DNA of 41,162 nucleotides from Bacillota bacterium (GTDB taxonomy: Bacteria > Bacillota > Sulfobacillia > Sulfobacillales > Sulfobacillaceae). Below the pieces are notes generated by a model. The model saw nothing but the letters and a program-made list of their open reading frames with translations, had not been told where the DNA came from and did no database searches. The stretch spans positions 1 through 41,162 of the forward strand of contig JAJYHT010000081.1 of assembly GCA_021784595.1 (NCBI GenBank). Reading direction: 5' to 3'. The position numbers and the translations under genes are program-made. Below, one piece after another: positions 6,236-23,522 of this stretch; position 1 is the first letter of the stretch; every line of letters begins with the position of its first letter.

Positions 6236-6958
6236 CTATACTTTTCTCTTATTGCCCCATGCCAACGTATGCAGTTGCGGCAAAACGCGGACGTCATTGA
6301 ACGCAGGATCGTGGAGCATCTTGTCCGCTAGCCATCGAAATTTGGCGAGCAAATGGTCAGCAAGGTCTCTCTGGTCGTAAGCATCTAGGTCGTCGTTTCC
6401 TACCTGCAGGTAAAATGGAACGAAAGGAAAGGCGGCGTGAACCTTTTGAGCGTAGGCATAATCTGTATCATCAAAAACTACAACCTTTAGACTGACGGGG
6501 ACCTTGTGATTGTGTGCTGAGTGAAGGATTTCTTGGAGCAACGGAAAATCGGTGACCATCCGACTACTGGGAGGTTTGGGACTCAACACAAGTTGGTCCA
6601 CGGTCGTCAACCAATCCTGCCACTTGCTCCCCTGAGTTTCTATGCTCAACTGATACCCGGCCCGATGGGCCAATTGGATAAATTGGCCCATCGGTTCTCC
6701 GATTAGTGCCGGATTCCCTCCAGACACGGTAATCCACTGAGCATTGTGGCCGCCCAGTTCAACCACCTGTCGCAAAATTTCTGATGGGGTAAGCAAGACA
6801 TGCTTCTCGCTACCATCCCATGTAAACATCGAATCGCACCAAACGCATCGATAGTCACATCCGCCGGTCCGCACAAATATTACCTTTAAGCCCATCATGG
6901 CCCCAGATCCTTGGACAACTGGGCCAAAAACCTCATTAACGGGAATTTTCATACTCAT
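6236..6958 (-). CDS. queE: 7-carboxy-7-deazaguanine synthase QueE (radical SAM)
   Basis: QueE converts 6-carboxy-tetrahydropterin into 7-carboxy-7-deazaguanine, the ring-contraction step to preQ0. The 240-residue protein has the radical-SAM cluster motif Cx3Cx2C at C34, C38 and C41 (CDYRCVWC), the substrate-binding EVFGPVVQGSG start typical of QueE, and an ITVSGGNP motif for SAM binding. Its ATG overlaps the queD stop (ATGA at 6955-6958), so translation is coupled. It is last in the queC-queD-queE operon. Together with FolE from elsewhere in the genome these enzymes give preQ0, the substrate of the TGT-like proteins encoded divergently next door. Confidence 0.95.
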   Translation of the reverse strand: MSMKIPVNEVFGPVVQGSGAMMGLKVIFVRTGGCDYRCVWCDSMFTWDGSEKHVLLTPSEILRQVVELGGHNAQWITVSGGNPALIGEPMGQFIQLAHRAGYQLSIETQGSKWQDWLTTVDQLVLSPKPPSSRMVTDFPLLQEILHSAHNHKVPVSLKVVVFDDTDYAYAQKVHAAFPFVPFYLQVGNDDLDAYDQRDLADHLLAKFRWLADKMLHDPAFNDVRVLPQLHTLAWGNKRKV

Positions 6959-7438: not shown

Positions 7439-8143
7439 TCATCGAAAAGTTATCCCGTCGATGGAGGGGGTTACAGGTCCCTCGTGCTTCGCCTCTCGTT
7501 CCGTTAGATATTCCGCCAGCCCACGATTTCTCAATTTGCAAGCGGGGCAAGTACCACATCCCGGTCCAATAATTCCGTTGTAACAGGTCATAGTCTCTTC
7601 GCGAACCAAATCAAAGCATCCCAATTGATCCGCTAGAGCCCATGTCTCCTTCTTGTCTAACCACATAAGTGGCGTATGAATGACAAATTGATCATCCATT
7701 GCCAGATTTAGCGTCACATTTAACGACTTGACAAAGACATCCCGACAATCTGGGTATCCACTAAAATCCGTCTCGCAAACCCCCGTGACGATATGTTTTG
7801 CCTGTAGTTGTCGCGCCAAAATGGTGGCGAAGGATAAGAATATGTGGTTGCGCCCCGGAACGAACGTACTCGGCAACTCTCCGTTACTTCCTGCCGTTAC
7901 CTCGATCTCAGTCCTTGTCAGGGCACTTGGGGCTAGTTGGTTTAATAAATTTAAATCCAAGACATGATGGGTCACGCCAAGCTTGTCAGCAATACGCCGT
8001 GCACACTCCACTTCTTCCTCGTGTCGCTGATTGTAACGAAACGTCACGGCTTCAACCCGCTCAAATTGGCGCTGCGCCCACACGAGGCAGGTTGTGCTGT
8101 CCTGGCCACCACTAAACACGACCACTGCGCGCCGATTTTCCAA
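7439..8143 (-). CDS. queC: 7-cyano-7-deazaguanine (preQ0) synthase QueC
   Basis: QueC uses ATP and ammonia to turn 7-carboxy-7-deazaguanine into preQ0. The PP-loop is SGGQDST at the N-terminus, followed by the family's [12 protein letters not shown] and [11 protein letters not shown] motifs, and a C-terminal zinc site [15 protein letters not shown]. The frame is open to an ATG at 8179, but an AAGGAGGGG site points to the tandem TTG codons at 8146/8143, giving [16 protein letters not shown] at 8143 has the better spacing. It heads the queCDE operon and is transcribed away from the TGT-like gene 253 bp apart, so its product is probably dedicated to DNA modification, though the host's queuosine pathway could also draw on it. 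Confidence 0.95.
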
Positions 8144-8236
8144 CAAGTCCCCTCCTTTCGACCTCCAAACGGCCTTCACATCGTCAAGACATTTTATAAT
8201 ACTCCGAACTGATTTGAAGCAGTTGGCTTAAACGCT

Positions 8237-8396: not shown

Positions 8397-10427
8397 ATGG
8401 ATAAGACTGCGCTCGTCATAACCTCTTGTACTGGAGAGAAAGTATTTCATCCCGATAATCAACTGACCCAGCAGGATTTCGTCAACCCAGAACGTTTAGC
8501 AGAGAGAGAAGGAGAACTGGCGAGCTATTGCCTACCTGCCGCTGAAATGTACACGGGAGGCCAACATCTCGATCTGATGAAAGGTGTCCGGCAGTTCCGC
8601 CAGGCCGGGGGCCGAATTGATGTCGCCATTCTGTCTGCCGGGTACGGTCTACTAGAAGAAACCGCCCGGATTGTGCCTTATGACATTACGTTCAATACGA
8701 TGCGGCGGTCGCAAATCGTAGAGTGGTCCCATAAGCGGAATGTGCCAGATGCCCTCGCCAAGAAAATGGCGGGACATGATCTTGTCTTCTTTCTGCTCGG
8801 TGATAAATACATCCAGGCCCTCGATCTGCCTCTTGGGATCAAAGGTCACCAAAAGAGAATCTTTTTTGCGGGCACGGTAAACAAGACGCAGATACTATCG
8901 GACGATCATTACTTGCTCGAGATCACCGAAATGGAGGCACGGCAATTTCATCGCGGGTTGGTACGCATTAAAGGAGCACTCTTCGCAAGATTGCTGACCC
9001 AATTGACAGAGCAAGGCGGTTCATGGGACGTGCTGTTTCGACGTCCGGAATTGACGCGCGAATATATCCTCCGGGACTACGCCATGGACGTACAAGGAGA
9101 TCTGTTTGATGGCCGTAACGAGACCGGAGAGCGCATGATGTTGCCCTTCATCTCCGAATTATTTCCAATATCACCCAATGAAGTGGCGCCCAATAGCGGG
9201 CGTGAATTTCTCTATTTCATGCCCGAGAACGATGATCGGGTGGACCCGACGTACGATTTTCTAACTGACACGGCCCGCGCTAAGCGCGATCCGCTCACCG
9301 ACGACTGGTATGCTCATCAGTTCTATCCGTCTCCGCAATACAATGGACTGCTGTTATCCAAGGTCAACATCGATAAGGCCTCACAACGAAAGCGCGAATT
9401 AATCCAACAACAAGGAATCCGAGAATTTCTCCATCTTCCCGCTAATTATCCCATCATGGGTGATTGCGGAGCGTTTAGTTATAAAGATCAATATCTACCG
9501 CCATACGACACCGGCGAAGTGCTCCAGTATTATGATACGCTGGGTTTTAACTTCGGGGTATCGGTCGACCATTTGATCGTCGGACCCTATCAAAGCGACG
9601 AAAGCGAACGTAATCGCCGGTTTAGATTAACCTTGGAGAACGCTGCAGACTTCATCAAGCAATATAAGATGCATCATCACTCCTTTGCCCCGATTGGGGT
9701 GGCCCAAGCATGGGATCCCGGTTCGTTTCGTGAGGCCATCCAAGAATTGATTCAACAAGGGTATGTCTATGTGGCATTGGGCGGTCTCGCGTTGGAAAAA
9801 TCGTCTCGAATCTTCGAGATAGCGAAGGCCATTGCTCCGATCATTCCCAATCCAGACTTCCGTGTGCATCTCTTCGGAGTCGCTAGAGATATGGCGACCA
9901 TGCGCGCGTTCCATCAGTTAGGCATTACGTCATTCGATTCGGCATCTCCCTTGCGACGGGCTTGGTTAGGGACTGGGCACAATTATCATGGCGTCGACGG
10001 CAAACATTATGCTGCTATCCGAATACCCGAGGCCTTTGAAACAAAGGGACGGGTCAAAAAAATGTTGGCCCACAGTGTAGAACCCTTCGCGACATACAAG
10101 CAGCGTGAACGCCATGCACTTGAAAGCCTGCGCGCTTATGATAAAGGGCAGATCGAGATCGACCAAGCGTTGCAAGCCATACTCGATTATGATCACCTGC
10201 TCGGCGAAGATCGCGCCGAACACAAAATACTTTATCGGCAAGTCTTGGTGGACAAACCATGGAAAACCTGCGGATGTACCATCTGTCATGAGATTGGTAT
10301 CGAGGTCCTGATTTTTCGCGGGAACAACCGCAATCGTCGACGGGGGTTTCACAATACGCACGTATATTTTCACCAAATATGTGAACTCCAAACTCAGTTA
10401 GGATTAGACTCTGTTCGGACACCGTGA
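8397..10427 (+). CDS. dpdA: DpdA-like DNA guanine transglycosylase with N-terminal YaaA/DUF6884-like domain
   Basis: The 676-residue protein has two parts. Residues 1-170 resemble the YaaA/DUF6884 type domain (ALVITSCTGEK, LPAAEMYTGGQHLDLMKGV, AILSAGYGLLEE, PYDITFNTM). Residues about 300-580 are a tRNA-guanine-transglycosylase barrel, with D356 in MGDCGAFSY corresponding to the TGT DSGGFQ motif and D514 in ITSFDSASPLRRAW in the place of the nucleophile. A zinc site follows at C625, C627 and C630 with histidines near 650-660. Known DpdA proteins exchange guanine in DNA for preQ0. The similar domain fusion in haloarchaeal TgtA5-type proteins is known; its role is not. The start is an ATG with TAGGAG 11 bp upstream. 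A tRNA substrate remains possible, but the dpd neighbours favour DNA. Confidence 0.8.
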   Translation: MDKTALVITSCTGEKVFHPDNQLTQQDFVNPERLAEREGELASYCLPAAEMYTGGQHLDLMKGVRQFRQAGGRIDVAILSAGYGLLEETARIVPYDITFNTMRRSQIVEWSHKRNVPDALAKKMAGHDLVFFLLGDKYIQALDLPLGIKGHQKRIFFAGTVNKTQILSDDHYLLEITEMEARQFHRGLVRIKGALFARLLTQLTEQGGSWDVLFRRPELTREYILRDYAMDVQGDLFDGRNETGERMMLPFISELFPISPNEVAPNSGREFLYFMPENDDRVDPTYDFLTDTARAKRDPLTDDWYAHQFYPSPQYNGLLLSKVNIDKASQRKRELIQQQGIREFLHLPANYPIMGDCGAFSYKDQYLPPYDTGEVLQYYDTLGFNFGVSVDHLIVGPYQSDESERNRRFRLTLENAADFIKQYKMHHHSFAPIGVAQAWDPGSFREAIQELIQQGYVYVALGGLALEKSSRIFEIAKAIAPIIPNPDFRVHLFGVARDMATMRAFHQLGITSFDSASPLRRAWLGTGHNYHGVDGKHYAAIRIPEAFETKGRVKKMLAHSVEPFATYKQRERHALESLRAYDKGQIEIDQALQAILDYDHLLGEDRAEHKILYRQVLVDKPWKTCGCTICHEIGIEVLIFRGNNRNRRRGFHNTHVYFHQICELQTQLGLDSVRTP

Positions 10428-10505
10428 TCGTCCCCAAAAACGAGATCAGTTCCAGTGTCATCCGTGCGCGAACGCCATTTCCTAACCATTACTTCTATTC
10501 ATTGG

Positions 10506-10534
10506 TTGACAAACCGTCGCACCCACACTAAGAT
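10506..10534 (+). promoter_or_regulatory. Sigma-70/A-type promoter for the second TGT operon
   Basis: TTGACA (10506-10511), a 17-bp spacer and TAAGAT (10529-10534) make a near-ideal vegetative promoter. It points to the start at 10592 and lies in the 164-bp gap after the dpdA-like gene, so the second TGT-like gene and the DpdGH pair behind it can be transcribed independently. Confidence 0.6.
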
Positions 10535-10591
10535 TAACGAAGCTGAACAGCAAGTTTCCAGATCTTACTTGCCTAAGCAGGGTGATACGCG

Positions 10592-11491
10592 ATGGAATTT
10601 TACGTCAGTTGGTCCCACAGCGACGTTTTGTTTGCGGATTATTTTGATAATTGCAATATATTGGTTAGCGCCGTTCCCGACAACCGACGGGCCATTGGCC
10701 GCATTAAGACCCGGCCCAGAAATTTACTGTTGGACAGCGGATCAGTTTATTATGCGCGTCAGCGTCTTCGACCGCCGGTCCAAACTGTTTTTCAGACGCA
10801 GTTAGATATGATCGAGGACTTGAATTTCGGTACTAATATACAAATGGTTCACTTGGACGAACCCATGATCAACAAGAGCACCCTGGTAGAATGCTATAGG
10901 GCAATGGAACGAACCCTCTATAATGCGTATGAATTTCTTCACCTGTTCCAAACGCACCATTTTCAGTCGACGATTCAACCCATGGGCGTCATTCAAGGAT
11001 TCGATGGTCCGAGCGTGCGGTACGCCGCCAGAGAACTTAAGAAAATGGGCTACAACAGCTTTGGCATCGGTTCCCTTCTCACGCAGCACCCCGATAAACA
11101 GTTGCACTTAATCCAAGAAGCGGCAACAATTGTCGGCCCCCAACAATTGCACGTGTTCGGCGTCACGGGTCTGGCCCAGATGAAAGAAATGATAAAACTC
11201 GGGATTACATCCTTCGATTCAACCCGACCTACGATGGCAGCAGTCTATTTTCAATTGTTTTATTCTAATCCCTTTCGAACCTACCTGTTAGCCGATTCGC
11301 GCTCCACGAAAACACTCTCTCGACTAAGTGAACCATTACCCTGTGGCTGTCCCGTGTGTTTAGTGAATCCCAAGGAAATGTTCACCGTCGGACCAAGAAA
11401 GTTTGCGAAACTACGAGCCGTTCATAACTATTATCACTTGACCAAGACGTTGGAACATCTGGCCGAACAGGAGAATCAGGGGGAGATCTAA
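10592..11491 (+). CDS. Second, stand-alone TGT-like transglycosylase
   Basis: A 299-residue TGT-fold protein without the N-terminal domain of its neighbour. It keeps the catalytic landmarks: D48 in LLLDSGSVYYARQ (DSGGFQ position), PMGVIQGFDG (the family's V-QG segment), D209 in GITSFDSTRP (nucleophile position), and a zinc site C251, C253, C256 with a histidine some 25 residues later. Both TGT-like proteins share GITSFDS and CGC-xx-C, so they are paralogues. It could be the partner of the longer protein in a heterodimer, as bacterial and eukaryotic TGTs dimerise, or act on another site. Its stop overlaps the next start (TAATG). Start ATG 10592 has a moderate AGGGTGA site. Confidence 0.75.
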   Translation: MEFYVSWSHSDVLFADYFDNCNILVSAVPDNRRAIGRIKTRPRNLLLDSGSVYYARQRLRPPVQTVFQTQLDMIEDLNFGTNIQMVHLDEPMINKSTLVECYRAMERTLYNAYEFLHLFQTHHFQSTIQPMGVIQGFDGPSVRYAARELKKMGYNSFGIGSLLTQHPDKQLHLIQEAATIVGPQQLHVFGVTGLAQMKEMIKLGITSFDSTRPTMAAVYFQLFYSNPFRTYLLADSRSTKTLSRLSEPLPCGCPVCLVNPKEMFTVGPRKFAKLRAVHNYYHLTKTLEHLAEQENQGEI

Positions 11492-12228
11492 TGTTATTTC
11501 AGATGTGCTATGGCCCCGAAGTAAAATCCGTATATAACGTCATCCGACGCAATCCCGGCCTTACAATCGACGACCTGTGTCAACGGTTTCAGTATCATCC
11601 CGCCGGAAGCATCGTCTCGCTGCTCCAAGGAGTTATCGTCTTGCTGAGTGACCTCGACATGATACGGGTATCCGATGGGTACCGTGTTACGGTCGACGAG
11701 CCATGGAACCCCGTAAAAATCTCATACAAGATCTTCGATTTACGCCATCATGTTGCCGATAGTGCTCTAGACTATGCATTCACACATATTTATGAAGATC
11801 TATTCGTCTTGCCGGATCAATTGTTCGTGCCGAACTTACATGTAGCCGTCAACATGAAGTATGAACAACTGGCCATCGGCGAAGAAAAAATTAACGCATG
11901 GAAGCGGATGATGGAATACTTTGGACTTGGCTATCGACTATATTCAGGATTCTATGCGATTCCCCACCTCCGTTTATTAACGGACATCATTGGCCAAGTC
12001 GACCACTGGGATGGGCCGCTACACCGTTTCTGTGAAGACGTGATCAACCCCAACCTCCCCTGCCTGACGGCGTCGCGAGCCGTATTTTCAGGCACCATAT
12101 TTGCCTTGACCCACCTCCATCGGCAAGGGAGTATCCACCTGGCTCGCCAACAAGATCTTCCTTATCCCTCCTATGGGGAAGATAAATGGAACTGGGTTAC
12201 CATCACAAACACGGGGGTGACACAATAA
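11491..12228 (+). CDS. DpdG-like protein, second copy in the TGT operon
   Basis: A 245-residue protein clearly related to the DpdG protein at 26602-27453. Both carry a winged-helix-like N-terminal part and the motif WK (137-138) followed by FGLGY (144-148); in the other copy these are 149-150 and 156-160. Both then show a P-domain with L..-I and a late L..L--.GSI-L segment (ALTHLHRQGSIHLARQ here). DpdG has no known catalytic activity; the layout suggests a DNA- or partner-binding subunit for the DpdH ATPase, which follows in both places. The start and stop overlap the neighbours as TAATG, so the three proteins are translationally coupled. An AGGGGGAG site precedes the start. Confidence 0.65.
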   Translation: MLFQMCYGPEVKSVYNVIRRNPGLTIDDLCQRFQYHPAGSIVSLLQGVIVLLSDLDMIRVSDGYRVTVDEPWNPVKISYKIFDLRHHVADSALDYAFTHIYEDLFVLPDQLFVPNLHVAVNMKYEQLAIGEEKINAWKRMMEYFGLGYRLYSGFYAIPHLRLLTDIIGQVDHWDGPLHRFCEDVINPNLPCLTASRAVFSGTIFALTHLHRQGSIHLARQQDLPYPSYGEDKWNWVTITNTGVTQ

Positions 12229-15200
12229 TGGTCCCCTGCATAAACCAAAACTCCCTGAAACTTCTCACAGGGACAGCGGACGAACGATACCTCCAATCGC
12301 CCGACTACTTCCGCCGCACCCATTATCCCCAGACGTTATACCGTTTCCGCGGCAACGAAACAGTCGATACATGGTCTGAAGATGAATTTCGAGATGAGTT
12401 AGAGGGGGCGGATACGCGCGGCAACCAAATTTACATAATTTTCGGTTCCACCGGATCAGGCAAATCAGAACTCCTATGTTGGGTGGCTGACCAAGTTTCA
12501 CATCGCCCGGACCGACCCGTTATACGCATTTCACGCACGGAAATCAACCCGCAAGTCCTAGTAGCAAAATGCTTTGAGAGTCTTGGTCTCAACAATCTGC
12601 TCGCGATCGATATATCCAAATGGCAATTGTTGTTGGACAAGCCCATCACCATCGTGAACCAAATGGTTTGGGGTACCCTGAGTGAATTTTTCGATTCTGA
12701 CGAAACCATCGTACCGCTTGCCCTCCTTCTAAGACCTGTCGTAGAGGAGAACCTCTTGAAATTTTCAAAGGAAGTGCAAGCTGGTCACATAACCCGAGCC
12801 TTAGAACTTTTGAGCCCGGATCAGTTTGCAGAATTGATAGGGACGACCTCTCTCCCCATGCCCCTTGACTATTTGGCCTTTCGTCAATCCCTCCGGGAAA
12901 AATTGGACCAATTTCTCCTAAATGGGCGGAGTATCCGATCATTGTTCCAAGAACTATCGCGGCACATTATCGCGAAGGGAATACGGCCCCTCTTACTAGT
13001 TGATGACCTCGTTCAGTCTGTAAACATTTACGCAGGAGAGTTATTGGATCACTTCTTATCGTTAGAGAACGGTACCTGGGATGTTGTCATCGGAGTGACC
13101 CCAGGAGTTCTTAACGAATCCAATAAAGGTCGATCAATTGCTGATAGAATAGAGACTCTGGATACGATCGATGACCGAGTTAAAAAACTATGGTTATCCG
13201 ACGAATCAGGAAGCCAGTTCTATGGGCTCACAGAGCACCATGTCGTCCCTTATATGCAGCAATACTTAGTGGAACTCAAAAGGCAGTCCGGCTTCACGTG
13301 TGCACCCGAATGTGTTCACTTTGCGCAATGCCAACAACTTCTGTTTGCATCTGACGCAGTGGAACTCTTGCCGTTTAATGAACAGTTGTTACGGAGAATG
13401 TATGCAGCAATACCCGACGGGAAGGGAAAACTCCGGTATATGCTGCTCAACACCAAGAAGATCCTCAAATTTGTGCTGAACCCTAGTCGACAGAACGCGC
13501 AACGAGTAGTAGGGCTAGTATTACGGGAACGCTACGCTGACCACGACGACCCGTTGACCAAACAGTTGGTGGAGTGGTATGCGGACTCCACATCGAATAT
13601 CGCAACAATACCAGAACTTTTCCGCCAGCACTTTCATCTGGGTGCCAGTTCCGTCCCGATAATGACGTTGAATACCGTCCATCCATCGTTGCCTCCCGAT
13701 CTTGGCCAGACCAACCCCTCCCGTCACGACGACTCCAAACGTCTTGCAGTGAGGGACTGGGCCGAAGGAAAGAAAGTGAATGGTGAACTACTCAACGGGG
13801 TCATTCTCGGTGTGTCTACGCTCGTTAGCGACGCCATCAAAGCGACCCTCATAGCCCGGCGCTTCACATCCCGTAAGTCATCCATGCTTCAGCGATCCGA
13901 AACCATTAAAGGCAGTCGATACCCCATCTATCTTGGGAATTCGAATATTCTGACCGAAAAGATAGTGGTCAGCAAGGGGGGGCCGGCCGTTGTCATCGCG
14001 GATTATCAGCAACTGAAACCTTCGCAAAAACCCTTGGTATTTCCCTCTTTGGCTAATGCGTCCGAAACCGCACAGTGGATCTACCAAGGGGAAAGTGTTC
14101 GAGACTTTTGGCTCGCGCAATTAGCAGAACATTTGACCGTGGACATTGATACATTTGCTTTACGACTGAAAACATGGGTCAATGAGTGGGTCGAGATCAG
14201 TCGCCATCAGCTCTTTTCCCTTCCGAGCCCGTTTTCCACAAGATTACAAGAAGATGTCGAACAATTCTTTCGCGACTGGTTTCTCCTGCGAGATAATATT
14301 TGCGATGCAGATCGACTAGAGGAGATTCCCGCGGAAAGTAACTTTGAACAGACCTTCTTATCGATCCGTCCAAGCGCGGTACTTGACAGATACACTTTCG
14401 GGTCTACTCCACTTGGAGAATTCATCACCACAATTCAACAAAACTTTCTGGCATACAAGGACGGGATGATTGAAGTCGCCCGCCAGGAAGGTAGACGGCA
14501 GGGCCACGTCTTACCGCTATTGACTCAACTCCCAGATCCCGAAGCGGCACAGATAGTCGCCGACATACGCAGTACATCGACCCTCGAGGACATTTCGCCT
14601 AAGGTTTTGCGTCACCTGGCAAAAACCAGTAATTGGTTAGACGATCACAGCATATTTGAACAGTACGAGGCCCTGTGCATGCTGCACAATAAGACAATGA
14701 ATGCATATAGTCACTGGTTGGACCTGCGAGTCCAAATAGCGATGCGACTGCAGTCTTTAGGCAATCAGATAATCCTTCCAGAGCCGCCTGTTGTCAATAT
14801 ACACTGGGAGTATCAGAGAGCCATGACTGAACAAAGCCAGTGGGATAGCCGGTGGAATATGACCCAATCCGTCCATGATGCTTTAGTTCTGACACCACAG
14901 CTAGCAATCACACAATTATTATCGAAGGATGCCGCGGCGAGGTCGGTGATGAAACCGTTCGTAAAGCAATGGCGAACCCTAGAGTCCCTCATCCATCGAT
15001 GCCTGAGGGGCGAGCGATTAGACCGCAGAAACCGTGCATTCGTGGAACGATGGAAAACCCAGCAGGTCCCTTCCCTGACATCTGAACTGAATCGCGCAAC
15101 CCAAATCCACGAGCGCATTCACATGTTGGCCATTCTCATTGCAAAAGACCGCCATCTTCCTTCGCATCTCACGTTGGCGGAAATCCGTACCCACATATCG

Positions 15201-15392
15201 CAGGATTCAAACATCTCCCGAAGCTTACGGAACAAATTGGTTCAATTGCTGAAGAACGGGGAAACCCACCTGCCTTCTCGAGGCCAAACGATTGTCTTGA
15301 GCGAACTCCAAGAGCAGTTTCCCCAGACCTATTCCTACGTGGACATAAAGATTCGGGTGAAAAAACTTGGCGAAAATGACTTGGACCGTTAA
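12228..15392 (+). CDS. DpdH-like P-loop ATPase, second copy in the TGT operon
   Basis: A 1054-residue STAND/AAA-like ATPase. Walker A is FGSTGSGKS (G73-S80) and Walker B RPLLLVDD (253-260). A small cysteine cluster FTCAPECVHFAQC lies near 355-366, and an LLPFNEQLLRRMY segment follows. The DpdH at 23519-26611 has the same architecture, with Walker A at the same position (G74-S81), Walker B FIED at 313-316 and LYPFNRTALENIY, and like this one follows a DpdG. The two are therefore diverged paralogues. The frame is open from 12186, but ATG 12228 overlaps the dpdG-like stop (TAATG) and has a GGGGGTGA site. Linked to transglycosylases, it may drive DNA handling during modification in place of DpdB (inference). 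Confidence 0.65.
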   Translation: MVPCINQNSLKLLTGTADERYLQSPDYFRRTHYPQTLYRFRGNETVDTWSEDEFRDELEGADTRGNQIYIIFGSTGSGKSELLCWVADQVSHRPDRPVIRISRTEINPQVLVAKCFESLGLNNLLAIDISKWQLLLDKPITIVNQMVWGTLSEFFDSDETIVPLALLLRPVVEENLLKFSKEVQAGHITRALELLSPDQFAELIGTTSLPMPLDYLAFRQSLREKLDQFLLNGRSIRSLFQELSRHIIAKGIRPLLLVDDLVQSVNIYAGELLDHFLSLENGTWDVVIGVTPGVLNESNKGRSIADRIETLDTIDDRVKKLWLSDESGSQFYGLTEHHVVPYMQQYLVELKRQSGFTCAPECVHFAQCQQLLFASDAVELLPFNEQLLRRMYAAIPDGKGKLRYMLLNTKKILKFVLNPSRQNAQRVVGLVLRERYADHDDPLTKQLVEWYADSTSNIATIPELFRQHFHLGASSVPIMTLNTVHPSLPPDLGQTNPSRHDDSKRLAVRDWAEGKKVNGELLNGVILGVSTLVSDAIKATLIARRFTSRKSSMLQRSETIKGSRYPIYLGNSNILTEKIVVSKGGPAVVIADYQQLKPSQKPLVFPSLANASETAQWIYQGESVRDFWLAQLAEHLTVDIDTFALRLKTWVNEWVEISRHQLFSLPSPFSTRLQEDVEQFFRDWFLLRDNICDADRLEEIPAESNFEQTFLSIRPSAVLDRYTFGSTPLGEFITTIQQNFLAYKDGMIEVARQEGRRQGHVLPLLTQLPDPEAAQIVADIRSTSTLEDISPKVLRHLAKTSNWLDDHSIFEQYEALCMLHNKTMNAYSHWLDLRVQIAMRLQSLGNQIILPEPPVVNIHWEYQRAMTEQSQWDSRWNMTQSVHDALVLTPQLAITQLLSKDAAARSVMKPFVKQWRTLESLIHRCLRGERLDRRNRAFVERWKTQQVPSLTSELNRATQIHERIHMLAILIAKDRHLPSHLTLAEIRTHISQDSNISRSLRNKLVQLLKNGETHLPSRGQTIVLSELQEQFPQTYSYVDIKIRVKKLGENDLDR

Positions 15393-15579: not shown

Positions 15580-17850
15580 TCAACTGGTCCGCGCATTCCT
15601 CGCATAGCTCTCCAAGGATTCGATAATGCCGGTTGTCCCAGAACTACGTGGATATACAATCTCACCGGAAACGTACGGCATAATGCCGATGGTCAGTGCG
15701 TGAGACAAACACGTCGTGACTACAACCGCGATATCGGAGTTTTTGGCATGATGTTTCGCCTGGGTGGTCAGTGTGTTATCGGTACACAATTGTATATTCA
15801 CTGATGGGTTCCGTTTAGAGACCAGTTCCACGACTCTTTGCGCAGCCGGTTCGCGACAAGAAAAAATCGTGATGCGGCGGTCACCCAATCGGAGCAACAT
15901 ATCCTCTACAACAGCAGATTCAGCGCTTTCTGCAAGCATTTCTTTGAATTTCTCGAGCATATTTGGCTCGACATGAACCCGCCCCCCTAGCTGCATCCAG
16001 TCCGAAATTTCCGTTGCATTATGGGTGGCCGAGATTGTCGCAGCCCACCGATACCAGATATCCCGCAATTTTTCGTTGGATAACCCATGCTCATTAAACA
16101 ATTCAAGAAAATCCAACACATGGATTCGCATTCGGCTGGAAGGATGCGCATTTAGCCATTCCCTCAAATCGTTCCACAATTGCTCCTTCATGGCACCATC
16201 GAGAGCAAGCAGTCCTTCCGTCAATCGGAAACTGAGCCCAAGATTGGTGTCGTTCATTTTTCCATGAACAATGAGAGCAAACCGTGAGCTTTCGTATACC
16301 TTGGTCGCTAATTCACTCGGAAAATGTTCCTCCTGGATTAAGGACGTCGCGATCATAGGCAATGCAATCGCCAACAGTTCCTTGGACATGGGGATCGTCG
16401 ATGTTGCCACTTCCATTAATTCCAGTTCCAAGGCATCCAGCATCGCCGGAGACCATGGAATTTGATTCATTTCGCCCTCGATAGCTTGGAGTGCCCTATA
16501 GAGGCCTGTCTTATCCGTATTCGGCGATCGAGCCGCTCTCAACCAATTGATCCAATCTGAAGGATCATCTGATCCGTCACTGTCGTCTTGGAATCCTGCG
16601 CTCCATGTAAGTACGAACCGTACCCACCCCTTGATTGTCGGATCCGAATTTAGGTGGTCCTGCTCCGCCTGACTGAGATGCACATAGGCATCATACGCCG
16701 TCAAGCACATGTCAGACGTTTCGGTCATGAGTGCAATGCCACACAATAATTTCACCTTGGCCACTGACGATTCACAATCCAGCAGCGTTAAATAAGCATC
16801 TTCGTATTGACCTAAGCCGAAAAACTGCTGAGCCTCATCAAGGGAAGCCGCTGGAGCGCCAGGCTCAGCAGGGGCTATCAGAGTAATCAAATGTCTTAAC
16901 AACTCAATGGTCTCTGCATCCTCCGCCAACGCCACGTATCGGTTGAGTTTATCTAGCTCCGAGCGAAACGCTGCTTCGTAACCAAAGATCCGAAGAAAAA
17001 TATCCTCGTCGAACCCGAGTTGTGACCGTAATAGCGTACCCAAACGAGATCGCGCCTCTGCGAACGGCCCATGGAGAACCTGATGAGGTTCCAGTTCAGC
17101 ATAGACAATGACCTGGTCATAGAAAGCTTGTAGCATGGCGCGCTGTACGGACCTAGGTACAGTCTGCAGACCAGCTATCAATTCAAACTCTTCGAGCTCC
17201 CAAATCTCCTTCCACTTCCCCTGGCTACTTAACCACTGAATCGTGAGAAAGCTAGCGTTCTCCTCACTGACAAAGTGCCCCGTACGTATTAGCGTCAGGA
17301 TACGATATGCCTCGTCCCAATCGCGAAAGGACAGATGTTGAAAGAACCGGTTCCTAAGGGAAAACGCACTCATCTCGATTTCATCAAAGGGGATAATCGG
17401 CCTTCGGTCGTCCAGTGCCACCCACAATCGCAATACATTCCAGACGTCGTTCTCTACTTCGTTAGGAGACGCGAGCCCGTAATAACCGTGAGGGAAAATT
17501 TGCCCTCCCAAGGAGCCAATCTGCGTATTGTGGTCAAAGAGTTGTTTAGTATGGCCGGGGTGTTGAGCGTAAACCGGCGTAACGAACTTCGTAATTTCTT
17601 CAAAGTGGCCGTACAGGGTAGATTCATCTGAATTCAAAACAAGCCAAATGATTGACGAGTGATGGTGATACGGAATGACTGCGGTCTTGCCGTCCACCAA
17701 ACGCTGCAGCATTGAACCAAGCATGGCATGAGAACAATCAATGACCCCCTCCGGCTCGATACTCATGAGCCGGTAGCTATTTCTCCCTTCTACCTGTAGC
17801 ACCGAAAGAAGAAAAGCCCGAAGTGTGTGATCTGTAATAGGGATGTTCAT
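15580..17850 (-). CDS. dpdD: DpdD
   Basis: A 756-residue protein of the DpdD type, recognised mainly by its size and its place at the end of a dpdE-F-G-H-I-J-K series. The first 500 residues are largely helical, acidic and repeat-like (for example LDEAQQFFGLGQYEDAYLTL), suggesting a TPR-like scaffold. The last 100 form an alpha/beta segment: RITIFSCREPAAQRVVEL, DIAVVVTTCLSHALT, and a final glycine-rich YPRSSGTTGIIESLE. No nuclease or ATPase motif is obvious. The start is the ATG at 17850, overlapping the dpdK stop (ATGA) with GGGAGGAGG inside dpdK's end; the frame could extend to 17871. Function is unknown; probably part of the restriction arm. Confidence 0.7.
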   Translation of the reverse strand: MNIPITDHTLRAFLLSVLQVEGRNSYRLMSIEPEGVIDCSHAMLGSMLQRLVDGKTAVIPYHHHSSIIWLVLNSDESTLYGHFEEITKFVTPVYAQHPGHTKQLFDHNTQIGSLGGQIFPHGYYGLASPNEVENDVWNVLRLWVALDDRRPIIPFDEIEMSAFSLRNRFFQHLSFRDWDEAYRILTLIRTGHFVSEENASFLTIQWLSSQGKWKEIWELEEFELIAGLQTVPRSVQRAMLQAFYDQVIVYAELEPHQVLHGPFAEARSRLGTLLRSQLGFDEDIFLRIFGYEAAFRSELDKLNRYVALAEDAETIELLRHLITLIAPAEPGAPAASLDEAQQFFGLGQYEDAYLTLLDCESSVAKVKLLCGIALMTETSDMCLTAYDAYVHLSQAEQDHLNSDPTIKGWVRFVLTWSAGFQDDSDGSDDPSDWINWLRAARSPNTDKTGLYRALQAIEGEMNQIPWSPAMLDALELELMEVATSTIPMSKELLAIALPMIATSLIQEEHFPSELATKVYESSRFALIVHGKMNDTNLGLSFRLTEGLLALDGAMKEQLWNDLREWLNAHPSSRMRIHVLDFLELFNEHGLSNEKLRDIWYRWAATISATHNATEISDWMQLGGRVHVEPNMLEKFKEMLAESAESAVVEDMLLRLGDRRITIFSCREPAAQRVVELVSKRNPSVNIQLCTDNTLTTQAKHHAKNSDIAVVVTTCLSHALTIGIMPYVSGEIVYPRSSGTTGIIESLESYARNARTS

Positions 17851-18359
17851 AATATGGTCGCCTCCTCCCACCGCGCACGCGCATACAGAAGAGCCTGGTT
17901 AATATCTGGCCTCAACGTCGTTATTCGCACGCCTTCGCCGTTAATATGAATGCCGCGATAGGTAAAGTTCATCGACCCATGCAGATAAAAATTGTTAGAA
18001 CACAGCCCCTTCTCGTGGTTATTAGCCAAATGTCTAAAGGCAATATTCTCCGTGCTTTCGACTAACCCCAGGAATTTAGCTGTATGCGTGTCCTCCGCAT
18101 TACAAATTATGCGGACATTCGTCCCGTGAAACGCCCATTGCTGAATGATGTCCGACAAATAGATTCGCCGCCCCTCAGCAAAAGGAAACACATCGGCAAA
18201 TTGTCCTTGCTGATTATCCAAAACGGGAGAATTGCTTACCCACGGAGAAATCACATAGATTTCCTGACTAGGTCTAACAGCTTCTACCGTGAAAAGGGAC
18301 GCTAACGCATCCGTGAGCTCTTTGGTTCCACCATACGAGCGAATAAAGCGATCGGTCAA
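17847..18359 (-). CDS. dpdK: DpdK, phospholipase-D-type nuclease
   Basis: A 170-residue single-domain PLD-superfamily protein. The HKD-type motif is H115-E-K117 followed by GS (128-129) and N131 (NNHEKGLCSNNFYLHGSMNF). One such motif means it would work as a dimer, like Nuc/BfiI-type nucleases. It is the only obvious nuclease in the dpdE-D operon itself and so the likely DNA-cutting component. The start is inferred as TTG 18359: it overlaps the dpdJ stop (TTGA) and follows GGGAGGTG by 7 bases, whereas the ATG at 18395 lies inside dpdJ without such a site. Next in line is dpdD, also with a 4-base overlap. Confidence 0.85.
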   Translation of the reverse strand: MTDRFIRSYGGTKELTDALASLFTVEAVRPSQEIYVISPWVSNSPVLDNQQGQFADVFPFAEGRRIYLSDIIQQWAFHGTNVRIICNAEDTHTAKFLGLVESTENIAFRHLANNHEKGLCSNNFYLHGSMNFTYRGIHINGEGVRITTLRPDINQALLYARARWEEATIL

Positions 18360-21300
18360 GCCGACACCTCCCGTATCCGTAATTCGAAATCCCATTGCGT
18401 ACCACGGTTATGAATCGCCGCTACATACGGAAAGAACAATTCATAATCAAGTTCAATTGAGGACTGGACGACATTCAAAAGGGCCTGTTGACACCGTTCA
18501 ATATCCTGTATCGCACACTGCAGGCGTACACGAATGCCCTGACCCAGGGTGCTTCGAACGGTTTCTTCCCAGCCCGGGGTTGCATAATCCACGGTGACAT
18601 ACGGATCACCCAGAAGATTGCGTAACAAAGCCCGAGACGGGGGTAGAAACGACTGGTAGGGACTGTAGATGTCAAGACATTCGGGGCAGGAGTCAAAGCA
18701 ATTCTCCCATAGCAAGGACTCGATAATGTGAAAGCGCTGTTTTTCATCTACATGGATGCCCGGTTGGACAGATCGAATGACGTTGTCTAACTGATCAGAG
18801 AAGTCGTCGTGCTTAACACAGGCGACGGTGAACACGCGAGCATCAATTTTAAGGTTTAATCGTTTTTCCTCCCCACGCCAGAACTCATGCAAAGTCGCTA
18901 CGAATGCGTCGGTTGCTTGGTTGGCATTGCCATGGACGAATCGCGTCATCAAACTGATCAGGAAATCTTTACGTGGTGAGATACCAAGCGTCGTAAGTTG
19001 CCATTGTATTTGCCGCAACACCTGCTTTTGCTCTCCCACAGACGTGGTCGCCCGCATCGCCATTAGCATCTCTGCCCACGGTCCTTGCTTGAGATGCGGA
19101 AGCAACGCATCCAACGATGAGGCTACTTTCTTCCGAGGACAAAAATCGATTGCCATCGACACTGCCTCTTCAAATCCAACGGGATCGTTGGCAATGGCCG
19201 AAGCTACTTTAGCAATGATCCCAAGCCCCCCCGACTCACTCTCAGACAGCCAAATTTGTCCGTCATGGATATCGACGAGTAGTTCGTCAACATTGAGGTC
19301 GGGAACCAGGTTGATCAATGCCGATTGAATACTGGCCGCCACCGTGACGATCAGGCGTTCATTTACCCAATCCCAGAACACATTGTCCTTACACAAGTCC
19401 TTATGAAGTACGTCGAGGTGGTCAATAAATTGCTTCATGAGGGCCTCATCCTCAATGTAATCAACGAGCTTTTTATATAACTTGGTATCGCTCACGGGAT
19501 CTGAATCACCATAGCTTTGTTCATCAGTAAGGGTTGATTGAAAGATAACCTCGAGTGTTCGAGTGGAAATACTTGACATTTTAGACCGGTAGATCCCTAT
19601 GGATTCCGGGATATCGCACCCTGAACTTACGGCGGTAGCTATCGCCGACGACGTGCAGATCTCTAGGAGCCATTGTCTTTCAAAAACCGAGAGTTTCCCC
19701 CTCAAGGCCTCATCCTGGTGAATCCGATAGGCATAGTACTGGGCACGAAATTCCTGCATCATCTGAGACCACTGTTCGTGCGCCACCAGTTTACGCAAGT
19801 CTTGTACACGAAGTTGAAACTGCAACGCATCGGCGTCAACGCGAAATCCGACTCCCGCCTGTTGCCCTTGCCACTCAAACATATAAGTCTGTCGGACACT
19901 GCGCCCGTCAGTATACCTCGTGTCCGTTTCAACACCTTGTGCGTAGCGGACAAACGTCGTATGCGAATGCTCTGAACTAGACCAGTAAGCGATCCGTTCG
20001 ATGAGCTGATTTAGCATCATCGACCGCGGAAGGACGATATCCCGCCCCTCGTTGGTGAAGTGAGCCTCGTCGTGCGGCGTGATTTCGACATTCCACTGAA
20101 GAAAACCAGTTGATCGATCGGAGACATTTTTGGGAATGTTTCTGACCTCAATCGCTTCAGGTAATAGTACGGTAACTGCTCCATTCTGAACGCTTTCCAA
20201 CGGCGTAACCTTGATCGACTTCGTCTGGCTTAGGTCAATGACGGTCGTATTGTCTGGCAGTGCAAGCCAGTGTGCCTCGGTAATCTTTCGGACATTCACA
20301 TAGCGCTTGGAGACGTTTCCCGGTGCGAACTCTGCCATTCCTTGTGGCAAGCCCATAAATTGGTGGTCTAAAGTTTTATCCGGGAGAATGATTTCCAATT
20401 CATTGATGTCTAGCGATGTGAAGAGATTGTTTGGAACATAGCCTCTGAGCGCGGTATCTGTGGAAGTTTTGACCGCTACAACGCGGTTTCCTTGCACTTC
20501 TTGTTCCCAGTTCACGCTGAGATGAGCAAATAAACGGGGAAGCAGATCTAAAAGAATGGACCGAGGAGGCGTCCATAAAATGCGGTCGATCGCAGGATCC
20601 GTGACTTGCAACGCGCTTTTAAGGTATCCGCGCAGGTCGGCAAAGTCGCCGGACAGGATCTCCTGGATTAAATCCCTGATAAGGCGTTTCTCAAATACGT
20701 ATTGACCCGACGAGGATGGCGTTAACACATTCCATACGCTCGCCTCAGGATACCGCATGCGTAATTTCGTTCCCAGCCAATCCATCAACCCAAACGCAGC
20801 GTGAATACGCTGAACATAGGGGTTATGGATGGGGAGACGCAGGTCTGGCAAGAGCGGACTAAATAATTGCTCCGGGTAGTCGTATGTGTACCGATCTCGT
20901 CCGTACGCCGAGGTAAGTACTAGGGTCCATGGCCGCATCCCAACCTGCCTGCCTGCCCGGCCTTTTCGCTGCATAAAAGATGCCAAATTGCGCGGAGCCT
21001 TATGCTGGATGACTGCACCGACCGCCGTATCGTTATACCCGACCTCCAACGTGCTTGTGGCGATAACCAACTTAGCTTTTGGATCGACTCCCTTCTGCTG
21101 CGAGGACGTAATGTCCACCTTTAGCGGATTTCTCAAACTATGTGGATCAATCGCCTCGGCAAACGACCATACTTGTCCCACCCTGTTTCGGACGTCTCGT
21201 TCATGTTTGGGAACAGCGTCTGCATACCGATACTGACTTAGCACTTTCCGTTCTTCTGCGTCTTGTTCAATGTGAAACCAACGATTAATGAGATCAAGCT

Positions 21301-22855
21301 TGTCTGTGAACCCAAAGATTTTCGATCCCCAAGACCCGCGTGAAACGGCGACGTCTAACGGATCCAGCATGCGACCCATGAGCATCGCAACCTGGACGGT
21401 GCTAGACAATAATGCGGTGGCCGAAAACGGATCTCCTCGCAATACAAGATTGTACTCCGCACCCTCCTCGTCCATCTCGTTATCCCGAGGCGTGATATAT
21501 CGGATTCCCATCTTGTCGATCCCAACTAATTGGGAAAAGAACGTTTCCGCGTTGGGAAGAGTTGCACTGAGCCCCGCAAAATGAATTCCCGCATGCGGAT
21601 GATATTCCTGGGCTAACCTTCGCCATCGGCGAAGAACATATGAAACGTTGGCACCGGTGACACCATGATAAATGTGGACCTCATCCAGAAGCACAAACGT
21701 GGGAAGTGCATACGCGTTCGGCCCTAAGCCAAACACATGATAATCCTTCAAACTCGTCAACTTTCGATTGAGCATCTCCGTTGTTGAAAACACAAGATCC
21801 GGCGGGCGCTGTTCCATCGTACGGCGGGTTAACGCAATGTTTTGTGGGCCCAACACAAACCCACAACCTATATTGGCACACCTTAATCGTTCCACTCCCT
21901 GGTCGAGGTCTGTATCCGCCCAGAGCAAGTCGGCATTACACGAGGGGCAAGATAAAAACGGGCAGACGTACCCGCCAGTCACATGGTGCCATTGGTAATA
22001 GTCGCTCTTTTTGACATGTTGGGCACTCGGTGGTGTCGCTCCGTAATAGGCACCCACGGTCAATGGCCGACATTTGACCGAATCACAATAATCATTAAGA
22101 TTGGTTATTTCGGAAACTGCTTCTTTGAACTGATCCTTTAGCAACTCGGTTCTCGGATAGAGGCATAGGACTCGCACCCACGGCCTATCATTTTTGCGGA
22201 TCGACTGCAAGGCCCGTGAAAGAGCAGGCAAGTAAAAAGCCTTGGTTTTGCCGGCCCCAGTGCCGGCTGCTATGATTGTTCCATAGTCGCGCGAACTTCC
22301 GCTAGATTCCAGCAAATGCAATAGCGCGTCCCGTTGGAACGCCGCCATGCGAATGTGGCCGTTATCAAGAAGTATTTTCAAGGGTTCGATGAAACTCTTG
22401 AGCTTAGCCGATTGAGCTAGTGACTTTTTTACGTCATCCCACGGTATCGTGCGTCTAGGATATCGACGATATGATACCTGTGACTTGATGTGACTGATGA
22501 GACTCGGAGCTGACATCCAGTCAGCATTTGAAAAGCGCTGTTTTAGCAGATACAGTAAGCGAACCGTCTCTGCATAACGAGTCCGGTAACCCAAGCCCTT
22601 TTTACTTTCAAACAACAGTTTCCGTTCTAGAAGACTTTTCAAGATATCGGTCGCCTGAAATCCTTGTCGTTGTAATTCTGTCCACAGTCGACCCAACTTG
22701 GGCGTGGCAGCGTTCGCGAGAATATCATAAATTTCCTGATCAGCATTCAGGTATCCACCCACGATTCCCCAATTTAGAGGGCCACTTTCTTGTCGTTCAA
22801 ATTGGGTGAGGACTTCGTCTGCTAACTGATCGAGGAGATCTTCACTGCCATTCAT
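18356..22855 (-). CDS. dpdJ: DpdJ, large DEAD/DEAH-type helicase
   Basis: A 1499-residue superfamily 2 helicase. Walker A is AAGTGAGKT (198-204), motif II DEVH (391-394), motif III SAT in AGLSATLPNAE, and the C-terminal helicase domain has ATSTLEVGYN and QRKGRAGR. A zinc-ribbon insertion lies between motifs Ia and II with cysteines at about 298, 303, 306, 326 and 331 (CPFLSCPSCN, RCANIGCGF). The following 800 residues have no motif I recognise. The LASFMQRKGRAGR region is like that of Lhr/MrfA-type DNA helicases. The start ATG 22855 is 16 bp after the dpdI stop with an AAAAGGGGG site. It would translocate on or open target DNA for DpdK. Confidence 0.88.
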   Translation of the reverse strand: MNGSEDLLDQLADEVLTQFERQESGPLNWGIVGGYLNADQEIYDILANAATPKLGRLWTELQRQGFQATDILKSLLERKLLFESKKGLGYRTRYAETVRLLYLLKQRFSNADWMSAPSLISHIKSQVSYRRYPRRTIPWDDVKKSLAQSAKLKSFIEPLKILLDNGHIRMAAFQRDALLHLLESSGSSRDYGTIIAAGTGAGKTKAFYLPALSRALQSIRKNDRPWVRVLCLYPRTELLKDQFKEAVSEITNLNDYCDSVKCRPLTVGAYYGATPPSAQHVKKSDYYQWHHVTGGYVCPFLSCPSCNADLLWADTDLDQGVERLRCANIGCGFVLGPQNIALTRRTMEQRPPDLVFSTTEMLNRKLTSLKDYHVFGLGPNAYALPTFVLLDEVHIYHGVTGANVSYVLRRWRRLAQEYHPHAGIHFAGLSATLPNAETFFSQLVGIDKMGIRYITPRDNEMDEEGAEYNLVLRGDPFSATALLSSTVQVAMLMGRMLDPLDVAVSRGSWGSKIFGFTDKLDLINRWFHIEQDAEERKVLSQYRYADAVPKHERDVRNRVGQVWSFAEAIDPHSLRNPLKVDITSSQQKGVDPKAKLVIATSTLEVGYNDTAVGAVIQHKAPRNLASFMQRKGRAGRQVGMRPWTLVLTSAYGRDRYTYDYPEQLFSPLLPDLRLPIHNPYVQRIHAAFGLMDWLGTKLRMRYPEASVWNVLTPSSSGQYVFEKRLIRDLIQEILSGDFADLRGYLKSALQVTDPAIDRILWTPPRSILLDLLPRLFAHLSVNWEQEVQGNRVVAVKTSTDTALRGYVPNNLFTSLDINELEIILPDKTLDHQFMGLPQGMAEFAPGNVSKRYVNVRKITEAHWLALPDNTTVIDLSQTKSIKVTPLESVQNGAVTVLLPEAIEVRNIPKNVSDRSTGFLQWNVEITPHDEAHFTNEGRDIVLPRSMMLNQLIERIAYWSSSEHSHTTFVRYAQGVETDTRYTDGRSVRQTYMFEWQGQQAGVGFRVDADALQFQLRVQDLRKLVAHEQWSQMMQEFRAQYYAYRIHQDEALRGKLSVFERQWLLEICTSSAIATAVSSGCDIPESIGIYRSKMSSISTRTLEVIFQSTLTDEQSYGDSDPVSDTKLYKKLVDYIEDEALMKQFIDHLDVLHKDLCKDNVFWDWVNERLIVTVAASIQSALINLVPDLNVDELLVDIHDGQIWLSESESGGLGIIAKVASAIANDPVGFEEAVSMAIDFCPRKKVASSLDALLPHLKQGPWAEMLMAMRATTSVGEQKQVLRQIQWQLTTLGISPRKDFLISLMTRFVHGNANQATDAFVATLHEFWRGEEKRLNLKIDARVFTVACVKHDDFSDQLDNVIRSVQPGIHVDEKQRFHIIESLLWENCFDSCPECLDIYSPYQSFLPPSRALLRNLLGDPYVTVDYATPGWEETVRSTLGQGIRVRLQCAIQDIERCQQALLNVVQSSIELDYELFFPYVAAIHNRGTQWDFELRIREVSA

Positions 22856-22871: not shown

Positions 22872-23522
22872 TTAGGGAAGAATACTCACACGGATTTTCT
22901 TGGCTAGGCCTTGTTCCCTTAACCAAGCCATGATGTGGGTGCTAAGATCATTAGCAGTTGCCTCACCCCGCGACATGAGGGCCAGAAATTCTTGTACTTC
23001 GTCTGTCGCGTCAAAATCTTTTACGATGTCGTCGGCACGCGATAGCGATCGTTTTAGGTCCCTTACTGTCTCTTTGGTCACTGACCAAGTATCCGAAAAC
23101 TCCGCGAGGCTTTTCTCCAAACGCTTAATTTCGTCTCGTAATGAAGAAAGTGGTGCTACCACATGCAGGACGCGAGACACTCCCTCCGTTGTGTGGGTAA
23201 CATACTGACGCCAACATTGCTGCAAGTCACTCGTGGGATTCTGAAGAGATGGAACGGATACGTTCTCGAAATCATCTGCTGACAGGTCTTGAATGAGCCC
23301 ATTGATTCGCCGTAGGACGTCATGCATCTGGGGGTTGGAGAAGGTCACCGGGTCCAGCCCATGGAGAACAGTATAGGATTCCTTGTACGCATCAAATTGG
23401 CGAACAAGCCCTTGAATTCGTGCCGACACCTCGCGCCTCTTTTGTTCACGCTGGGCTTTTGATTCTTGGGTTCGAACCTGATCAATGACCATCCGCGCTT
23501 CCTTTATCTTGTCCGATATCAT
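22872..23522 (-). CDS. dpdI: DpdI, coiled-coil protein
   Basis: A 216-residue, highly charged, nearly all-helical protein. Residues 1-60 (KIKEARMVIDQVRTQESK, then AQREQKRREVSARIQGLVRQ) and 125-190 look like coiled coil. No enzymatic motif and no membrane segment. Assigned as DpdI by order (between dpdH and dpdJ) and size. The start ATG 23522 overlaps the dpdH stop as ATGA. A structural or bridging role between the DpdH ATPase and the DpdJ helicase is reasonable but inferred. Confidence 0.7.
   Translation of the reverse strand: MISDKIKEARMVIDQVRTQESKAQREQKRREVSARIQGLVRQFDAYKESYTVLHGLDPVTFSNPQMHDVLRRINGLIQDLSADDFENVSVPSLQNPTSDLQQCWRQYVTHTTEGVSRVLHVVAPLSSLRDEIKRLEKSLAEFSDTWSVTKETVRDLKRSLSRADDIVKDFDATDEVQEFLALMSRGEATANDLSTHIMAWLREQGLAKKIRVSILP

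What the first reader, a model, noticed from the sequence alone, without database searches (positions are those of the whole stretch)
8397..11491. Two different TGT-like transglycosylases in one dpd island, with no DpdB or DpdC
The known Salmonella dpd pathway needs DpdA (TGT-like) plus DpdB to put preQ0 into DNA, and DpdC to convert it to the amide. Here there are two TGT-like proteins, both with TGT catalytic aspartates (D356/D514 and D48/D209) and the zinc cysteines, and neither DpdB nor DpdC is recognisable in the window. The second TGT may replace DpdB as a partner (heterodimer), or the two may make two modifications. Without DpdC the DNA base may stay preQ0, unless the extra N-terminal domain changes it.
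Basis: partly seen in the sequence, partly recalled or inferred. Interest (0 to 1): 0.9.

Follow-up and report, generated by a model that had tools for sequence, protein, structure and literature searches.

The report
DpdB-less DNA-deazaguanine island with two transglycosylases
This island marks and polices DNA with a modified guanine; instead of the usual helper protein DpdB it carries a second base-swapping enzyme with its own helper and motor proteins, an arrangement we found in several other bacterial phyla but not described in the papers we could search.

Summary
The two TGT genes are real and sit in a nearly complete dpd restriction-modification island. The second TGT (299 aa) keeps every catalytic and zinc residue and forms its own clade, distinct from DpdA and from tRNA TGT. 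It is co-translated with two remote relatives of DpdG and DpdH. This trio recurs in 16 of 16 related islands (Bacillota, Chloroflexota, Deinococcota), always with DpdA and never with a DpdB above cut-off. Of 26 plasmid-borne dpd islands, 12 have a second TGT without DpdB, 12 have DpdB without a second TGT, 2 have neither and none has both. Most likely the trio replaces DpdB in ATP-driven preQ0 insertion and the fused domain then makes the amide; that mechanism is inference. This is a new variant of a known system; published surveys that required dpdA plus dpdB would have missed it.

The parts
6236..6958 (-). queE (preQ0 synthesis)
   Evidence: Homologous to queE of the L033 and L036 islands at 48-49% identity; annotated QueE in L033
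6955..7401 (-). queD (preQ0 synthesis)
   Evidence: 45% identical to the 6-carboxytetrahydropterin synthase of the Paenibacillus sp. 37 island
7439..8179 (-). queC (preQ0 synthesis)
   Evidence: PADLOC QueC 9.7e-19; 67% identical to QueC of L033
8397..9036 (+). DpdC-type DUF6884/YaaA-like domain fused to the N-terminus of DpdA; motifs C11-xxx-K15 and LSAxxG (79-84)
   Evidence: Pfam DUF6884 45.8 bits; PADLOC DpdC 6e-8; motif alignment with stand-alone DpdC; motif definition in PMC11701544
9213..10427 (+). DpdA (DNA-guanine transglycosylase) part of the fusion; D356, D391, D514, Zn C625/C627/C630 with H652
   Evidence: NCBIfam DpdA 427 bits; Z 40.4 to 7ui4
10592..11491 (+). TGT2: second, shorter TGT; D48, D89, Q135, G160, D209, C251/C253/C256, H278 intact
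   Evidence: Pfam TGT 56.8 bits; residues invariant in 16/16 homologues; own clade 99/99; AF2 model pLDDT 89.5, Z 26.4 to Z. mobilis TGT
11491..12228 (+). p245: remote DpdG relative, start codon overlaps the TGT2 stop (TAATG)
   Evidence: hhalign 97.7% over 210 columns against DpdG; no Pfam/NCBIfam/PADLOC hit; junction sequence
12228..15392 (+). p1068 (1054 aa from ATG 12228): AAA-type ATPase, remote DpdH relative, Walker A GSTGSGKSE and Walker B LLLVDD; start overlaps the p245 stop
   Evidence: hhalign 99.7% over 494 columns against DpdH; invariant G76/G78/K79/S80 and D260
15580..17871 (-). dpdD
   Evidence: NCBIfam DpdD 319 bits, cut-off 300
17847..18395 (-). dpdK (PLD-like)
   Evidence: NCBIfam DpdK 136 bits, cut-off 100
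18356..22855 (-). dpdJ (helicase)
   Evidence: NCBIfam DpdJ 1284 bits, cut-off 800
22872..23522 (-). 216-aa protein in the dpdI position
   Evidence: NCBIfam DpdI only 25.6 bits, cut-off 150
23519..26611 (-). dpdH (below cut-off)
   Evidence: NCBIfam DpdH 322 bits, cut-off 450
26602..27453 (-). dpdG (weak)
   Evidence: NCBIfam DpdG 42 bits, cut-off 80
27477..30089 (-). dpdF (helicase)
   Evidence: NCBIfam DpdF 570 bits, cut-off 550
30086..33688 (-). dpdE (SNF2-type helicase, below cut-off)
   Evidence: NCBIfam DpdE 420 bits, cut-off 500

Best explanation
This is a dpd DNA-deazaguanine restriction-modification island of a DpdB-less, two-TGT type. SHOWN by sequence and predicted structure: (1) queC/queD/queE supply preQ0; (2) the first gene is a DpdC-DpdA fusion; (3) the second TGT is a separate, catalytically intact paralogue, co-translated with a DpdG-like protein and a DpdH-like AAA ATPase; (4) this trio is conserved with DpdA across phyla, in islands without a DpdB above cut-off; (5) the opposite strand carries a dpdD-K restriction set. 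INFERRED: DpdA and TGT2 work as partners in base exchange, probably with TGT2 pairing with DpdA as TGT subunits pair. The DpdG/DpdH-like pair binds and opens or moves DNA at the expense of ATP, the role that DpdB fills elsewhere. G in DNA becomes dPreQ0, and the fused DUF6884 domain hydrolyses it to dADG as the self mark. Unmarked DNA is attacked by DpdD-K.
For: DpdA and DpdC domains. TGT2 catalytic set invariant in 16/16; clade support; nearest solved structure by sequence is DpdA 7ui4 (1.5e-17), then archaeosine TGT (2.3e-10). Trio in 16/16 loci, with stop/start overlaps in the window. No DpdB over cut-off in 15 TGT2-bearing genomes or records or in the own genome. Plasmid dpd islands: 12 second TGT only, 12 DpdB only, 2 neither, 0 both; Fisher p 1e-5, ignoring relatedness. 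The same split occurs within Cyanobacteriota: Nostoc and Picosynechococcus have a second TGT and no DpdB; Scytonema and Allocoleopsis have a DGQHR/DndB protein and no second TGT. p1068 has intact Walker motifs. Thirteen host genomes carry a separate full-length tRNA Tgt, so TGT2 is not needed for tRNA there.
Against: No experiment and no complex prediction shows that TGT2 and DpdA interact. DpdG and DpdH belong to the restriction half in Salmonella, so their TGT2-linked relatives could sense rather than modify. Two DpdA-bearing Bacilli genomes (G454, G562) have neither a second TGT nor a DpdB, as have two plasmids, so a partner is not universal. The DpdB model used misses divergent cyanobacterial DpdB, so absence is firm only where the local profile and motif were also run. 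The exclusivity rests on few independent lineages (8 of 12 second-TGT plasmids are haloarchaeal), and in the tree the haloarchaeal and cyanobacterial second TGTs are not in the TGT2 clade.
Confidence: 0.5

Rival explanations
1. The two TGTs work separately: DpdA makes one mark and TGT2, with its own DpdG/DpdH-like helpers, makes a second mark or the same mark at other sites or on the other strand.
For: TGT2 keeps all catalytic and base-pocket residues and has a full set of its own helpers. In five of the 16 loci TGT2 is on the other strand from p245-p1068. One Clostridiales MAG carries three dpd-type TGTs in one region.
Against: TGT2 was found with DpdA in all 16 loci and one DpdC domain serves both. 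Co-occurrence and non-overlap with DpdB fit partnership better.
Confidence: 0.25
2. The TGT2 trio belongs to the restriction side: a sensor that reads or exchanges the base at unmodified sites and triggers DpdD-K, while DpdC-DpdA alone does the modification, as phage DpdA does without DpdB.
For: Its two partners resemble DpdG and DpdH, counted with restriction genes. Phage DpdA introduces preQ0 (PMC6884629), and phages are not reported there to carry DpdB. A published paper cites DpdB as dispensable in some clusters (PMC12839542).
Against: In the window the trio lies in the same direction and block as dpdC-dpdA, opposite to dpdD-K. Non-overlap with DpdB, a modification protein, would be unexplained.
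Confidence: 0.17
3. One of the two TGTs is really the tRNA TGT of this organism.
For: The genome has no canonical Tgt but does have a QueA-domain protein (225 bits).
Against: TGT2 scores 30 bits against the 307-bit cut-off for tRNA Tgt. The other 13 TGT2 genomes have a canonical Tgt as well. Its neighbours are all dpd genes.
Confidence: 0.05

Closest known systems
Dpd restriction-modification system of Salmonella Montevideo (DpdA-K)
   Same: preQ0 synthesis genes, DpdA, a DpdC-type domain, and recognisable DpdD, E, F, H, J, K
   Different: No DpdB; DpdC fused to DpdA; extra TGT2/DpdG-like/DpdH-like operon
Cyanobacterial dpd plasmids of Scytonema and Allocoleopsis
   Same: The same DpdC-DpdA fusion, 41-43% identical over 98%
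   Different: They carry a DGQHR/DndB (DpdB-type) gene and no second TGT
Haloarchaeal plasmid islands (Haloarcula, Natronosalvus, Haloferax and others)
   Same: DpdA with DUF6884 plus a second TGT followed by an approximately 300-aa protein and an ATPase; no DpdB detected
   Different: DUF6884 is absent from the DpdA N-terminus: it is the next gene downstream in some islands and, as inferred from protein length, probably fused at the C-terminus in others. The second TGT is a different clade, and the ATPase is BrxC/D-like.
BREX-related capture (BRC) systems with TGT (PMC12839542)
   Same: TGT plus an active NTPase without DpdB; the authors propose that the NTPase substitutes for DpdB
   Different: No DpdC and no Dpd restriction genes described; built on HerA/FtsK and PglZ. 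Relation of its TGT to TGT2 not tested.
Eukaryotic QTRT1/QTRT2 heterodimeric tRNA TGT
   Same: Idea of two TGT paralogues acting together
   Different: One QTRT subunit is non-catalytic (own knowledge); TGT2 keeps its catalytic residues

Membership tests
Dpd system | DpdA (DNA-guanine transglycosylase) | tested here: met
   427 bits vs cut-off 200; Z 40.4 to 7ui4
Dpd system | DpdB (DGQHR/ParB-like ATPase) | tested here: not met
   None in window or genome; assembly 97.5% complete
Dpd system | DpdC (DUF6884), preQ0 to amide | tested here: met
   Domain and motifs present as N-terminal fusion; catalytic activity not testable here
Dpd system | Restriction operon DpdD-K | tested here: met
   DpdD, F, J, K over cut-off; E and H below cut-off but long matches; G and I weak
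Dpd system | dPreQ0/dADG in genomic DNA | not testable with these tools
   Needs mass spectrometry
DpdA family (for TGT2) | NCBIfam NF041059 over 200 bits and place in the DpdA clade | tested here: not met
   80.5 bits; TGT2 and DpdA are separate clades, 99/99 and 100/99
tRNA-guanine transglycosylase Tgt (for TGT2) | NCBIfam TIGR00430 over 306.75 bits | tested here: not met
   30 bits
TGT superfamily (for TGT2) | TGT fold, catalytic Asp pair, Zn site | tested here: met
   PF01702 56.8 bits; residues; Z 26.4
Phage DpdA2 | Sequence kinship with Vibrio phage nt-1 DpdA2 | tested here: inconclusive
   No phage match at 1e-5 by tblastn and no PHROG; DpdA2 itself not compared
DpdG / DpdH (for p245 / p1068) | NCBIfam equivalog cut-offs | tested here: not met
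   p245 no hit, p1068 32 bits vs 450; remote homology only

The most novel reading that the evidence does not exclude
A two-TGT DNA modification machine in which DpdC-DpdA and TGT2 are both catalytically active parts of one ATP-driven complex, each serving one strand of the target or depositing a different 7-deazaguanine, and which has arisen more than once (bacterial, cyanobacterial and haloarchaeal second TGTs) as an alternative to DpdB.
Probability: 0.2. Interest if true: 0.82.

Novelty: new variant of a known kind. Interest (0 to 1): 0.62.

Why it matters
DpdB is treated as part of the bacterial insertion machinery, and a large published survey required dpdA plus dpdB to call an island (PMC11888242), so this class was invisible to it. 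A conserved substitute (second TGT plus a DpdG/DpdH-like ATPase pair) makes the question 'what does DpdB do for DpdA?' testable by comparison. It also shows DpdC physically joined to DpdA, so insertion and conversion of the base may be coupled. Several named strains carry the same cassette, for example Paenibacillus glucanolyticus NBRC 15330, P. tyrfis MSt1 and Fontibacillus panacisegetis DSM 28129.

Tried and rejected
Phage origin of TGT2: no match in 50,697 phage records, none in viral contigs, no PHROG. TGT2 as a decayed pseudo-enzyme: rejected, catalytic set invariant. TGT2 as a recent duplicate of DpdA: rejected by the tree. Missing DpdC: rejected. The weak DpdB hit in Paenibacillus sp. 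LS1 (40 bits vs cut-off 300, on another contig) was not counted as DpdB. A solved-structure match for the DpdC domain by sequence was not found, and the fold search of the whole fusion was filled by TGT hits and did not test residues 1-260, so the YaaA-like fold rests on Pfam and on PMC11701544. Key papers on DpdA/B/C biochemistry (Gedara 2023, Yuan 2018, Thiaville 2016) are not in the library; what is said of them comes from papers that cite them.

Full report
WHAT IS THERE. The window holds a nearly complete dpd island. On the minus strand lie queE, queD and queC (6236-8179). On the plus strand lie two TGT genes followed by two more ORFs (8397-15392). On the minus strand again lie dpdD, dpdK, dpdJ, a dpdI-like gene, dpdH, dpdG, dpdF and dpdE (15580-33688). 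The first TGT is DpdA: 427 bits against a cut-off of 200, a profile match of E 8e-122 to the solved DpdA 7ui4, and a predicted structure at Z 40.4 to it.

DPDC IS NOT MISSING. Residues 1-213 of that protein match DUF6884 (45.8 bits, cut-off 30) and PADLOC DpdC models. A published survey lists DUF6884 as the DpdC domain (PMC11888242), and another paper places DpdC in the related YaaA family (PMC12839542). The Pfam authors describe two conserved DUF6884 motifs, CxxxK and LSAxxG (PMC11701544). The window protein has CTGEK at 11-15 and LSAGYG at 79-84, and C11, K15, S80, A81 and G84 are invariant in 11 fusions. Stand-alone DpdC of Enterobacter shares these motifs and a PYxxTF motif, lies directly upstream of dpdA, and aligns to the window domain (E 9e-7 pairwise). 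In the 16 TGT2 islands DUF6884 is fused to DpdA in 14 and is a separate gene near an unfused DpdA in 2, Desulfocucumis and the OHK40 MAG. In some haloarchaeal islands it is the gene directly downstream of DpdA; in others the DpdA protein lacks it at the N-terminus but is about 965 aa long, which suggests a C-terminal fusion. Fusion and adjacency in different arrangements point to one shared task.

DPDB IS ABSENT. No DpdB was found in the window or in the 97.5%-complete genome.

THE SECOND TGT. It keeps the residues equivalent to D102, D156, Q203, G230 and D280 of the Zymomonas enzyme and the zinc site, unchanged in all 16 homologues. Its predicted structure (pLDDT 89.5) is a TGT barrel at Z 26.4 to Zymomonas TGT. 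By sequence its nearest solved relative is DpdA (1.5e-17), then archaeosine TGT. In a 79-sequence tree it forms a clade (99/99) apart from DpdA (100/99) and from canonical TGT; the join of TGT2 to DpdA (97/89) may be affected by long branches. It lacks the DpdA aspartate-histidine pair and the basic stretch before the HN motif, so the two proteins are not interchangeable.

ITS TWO PARTNERS. The next ORF starts on the stop codon of TGT2 (TAATG), and the third starts on the stop of the second. Profile comparison finds the 245-aa protein related to DpdG (97.7%, 210 columns) and the 1054-aa protein related to DpdH (99.7%, 494 columns), the latter with intact Walker motifs. The cassette is therefore a set of remote relatives of DpdA, DpdG and DpdH.

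HOW GENERAL IT IS. Searching with TGT2 gave 13 genome loci (Paenibacillus, Bacillus, Ectobacillus, Fontibacillus, a Clostridiales MAG, Desulfocucumis, three Chloroflexota) and two plasmids (Paenibacillus sp. 37, Deinococcus taeanensis). All 16, the window included, hold the trio and a DpdA. None has a DpdB over cut-off. All 13 genomes have a full-length tRNA Tgt besides; the window's own genome has none, although it has a QueA-domain protein, which remains unexplained.

NON-OVERLAP WITH DPDB. Taking DpdA, not TGT2, as bait in plasmids gave 26 islands. Twelve have a second TGT and no DpdB detected: Paenibacillus, Deinococcus, Nostoc, Picosynechococcus and eight haloarchaea. Twelve have DpdB and no second TGT detected: ten Proteobacteria, Scytonema and Allocoleopsis (the Bradyrhizobium record was left out of the TGT family search and rests). 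Two have neither. Fisher p is 1e-5 if the records were independent, which they are not; counted by lineage the test is weak. In whole genomes, DpdA-first searches of Bacilli, of one genus within them and of Chloroflexota gave six genomes with a DpdA over cut-off and a second TGT, none of them with DpdB over cut-off, and two with DpdA alone. The DpdB model misses the cyanobacterial type, so a local profile and a DGQHR motif search were added; they found none in the two-TGT loci. The cyanobacterial DpdB assignment rests on record annotation and that motif.

MECHANISM. Most likely the trio takes the place of DpdB: TGT2 partners DpdA, the DpdG-like protein and the ATPase prepare the DNA, DpdA (and perhaps TGT2) swap G for preQ0, and the fused domain makes the amide. 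The gene content, domain anatomy and non-overlap are shown; the interaction, the ATP step and the product are inferred. Rivals are two separate marks (0.25), a sensor for restriction (0.17) and a tRNA role (0.05).

NOVELTY. The two-TGT arrangement was not found described in the papers that could be searched, though one paper cites DpdB as dispensable in some clusters and proposes an NTPase as substitute in a different system. Subscription papers were not available, so prior mention cannot be excluded. It is a new variant of the Dpd system, not a new kind.

Noticed in passing
window 34184-37757 (-): A PD-(D/E)XK nuclease (439 aa) and a UvrD/AddA-like helicase (789 aa) follow dpdE. The same pair (42-44% identity) lies beside the dpd island in L045, and a PD-(D/E)XK/UvrD pair stands next to a solitary DpdA+DUF6884 in L106, so it may be a recurrent dpd accessory.
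   Followed up: partly
window 39299-40498 (-): Tyrosine recombinase at the island edge; related recombinases lie near the islands in L036 and L044, so the island is probably mobile.
   Followed up: no
L090, L091, L092, L093, L120, L121: Alphaproteobacterial plasmids have DpdB-DpdA-DpdB, two different DpdB genes flanking one DpdA; the second copy suggests that two partners per DpdA may be usual there.
   Followed up: partly
L042 and L113 (Clostridiales MAG Soudan_19): Three dpd-type TGTs in one region: DpdC-DpdA, TGT2 and a cyanobacterial-type second TGT.
   Followed up: partly
L082 11178-12125; L083 6159-7082: Cyanobacterial second TGT sits between two DEAD/DEAH helicases, next to a DpdC-DpdA fusion.
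   Followed up: partly
L051, L052, L084-L087, L115, L116: Haloarchaeal plasmid islands carry DpdA/DUF6884, a second TGT, an approximately 300-aa unknown and usually a BrxC/D-like ATPase, often with preQ0 synthesis genes and Csa3 nearby.
   Followed up: partly
L033 19094-19891, L036 9095-9886, L037, L038, L039, L041, L048: A 262-272 aa protein without family match lies between dpdCA and tgt2 in Paenibacillus, Fontibacillus and Bacillus islands; absent from the window.
   Followed up: partly
own genome G000 (C95:140105-141109): QueA-domain protein (225 bits) present although no canonical tRNA Tgt was found in the assembly.
   Followed up: partly
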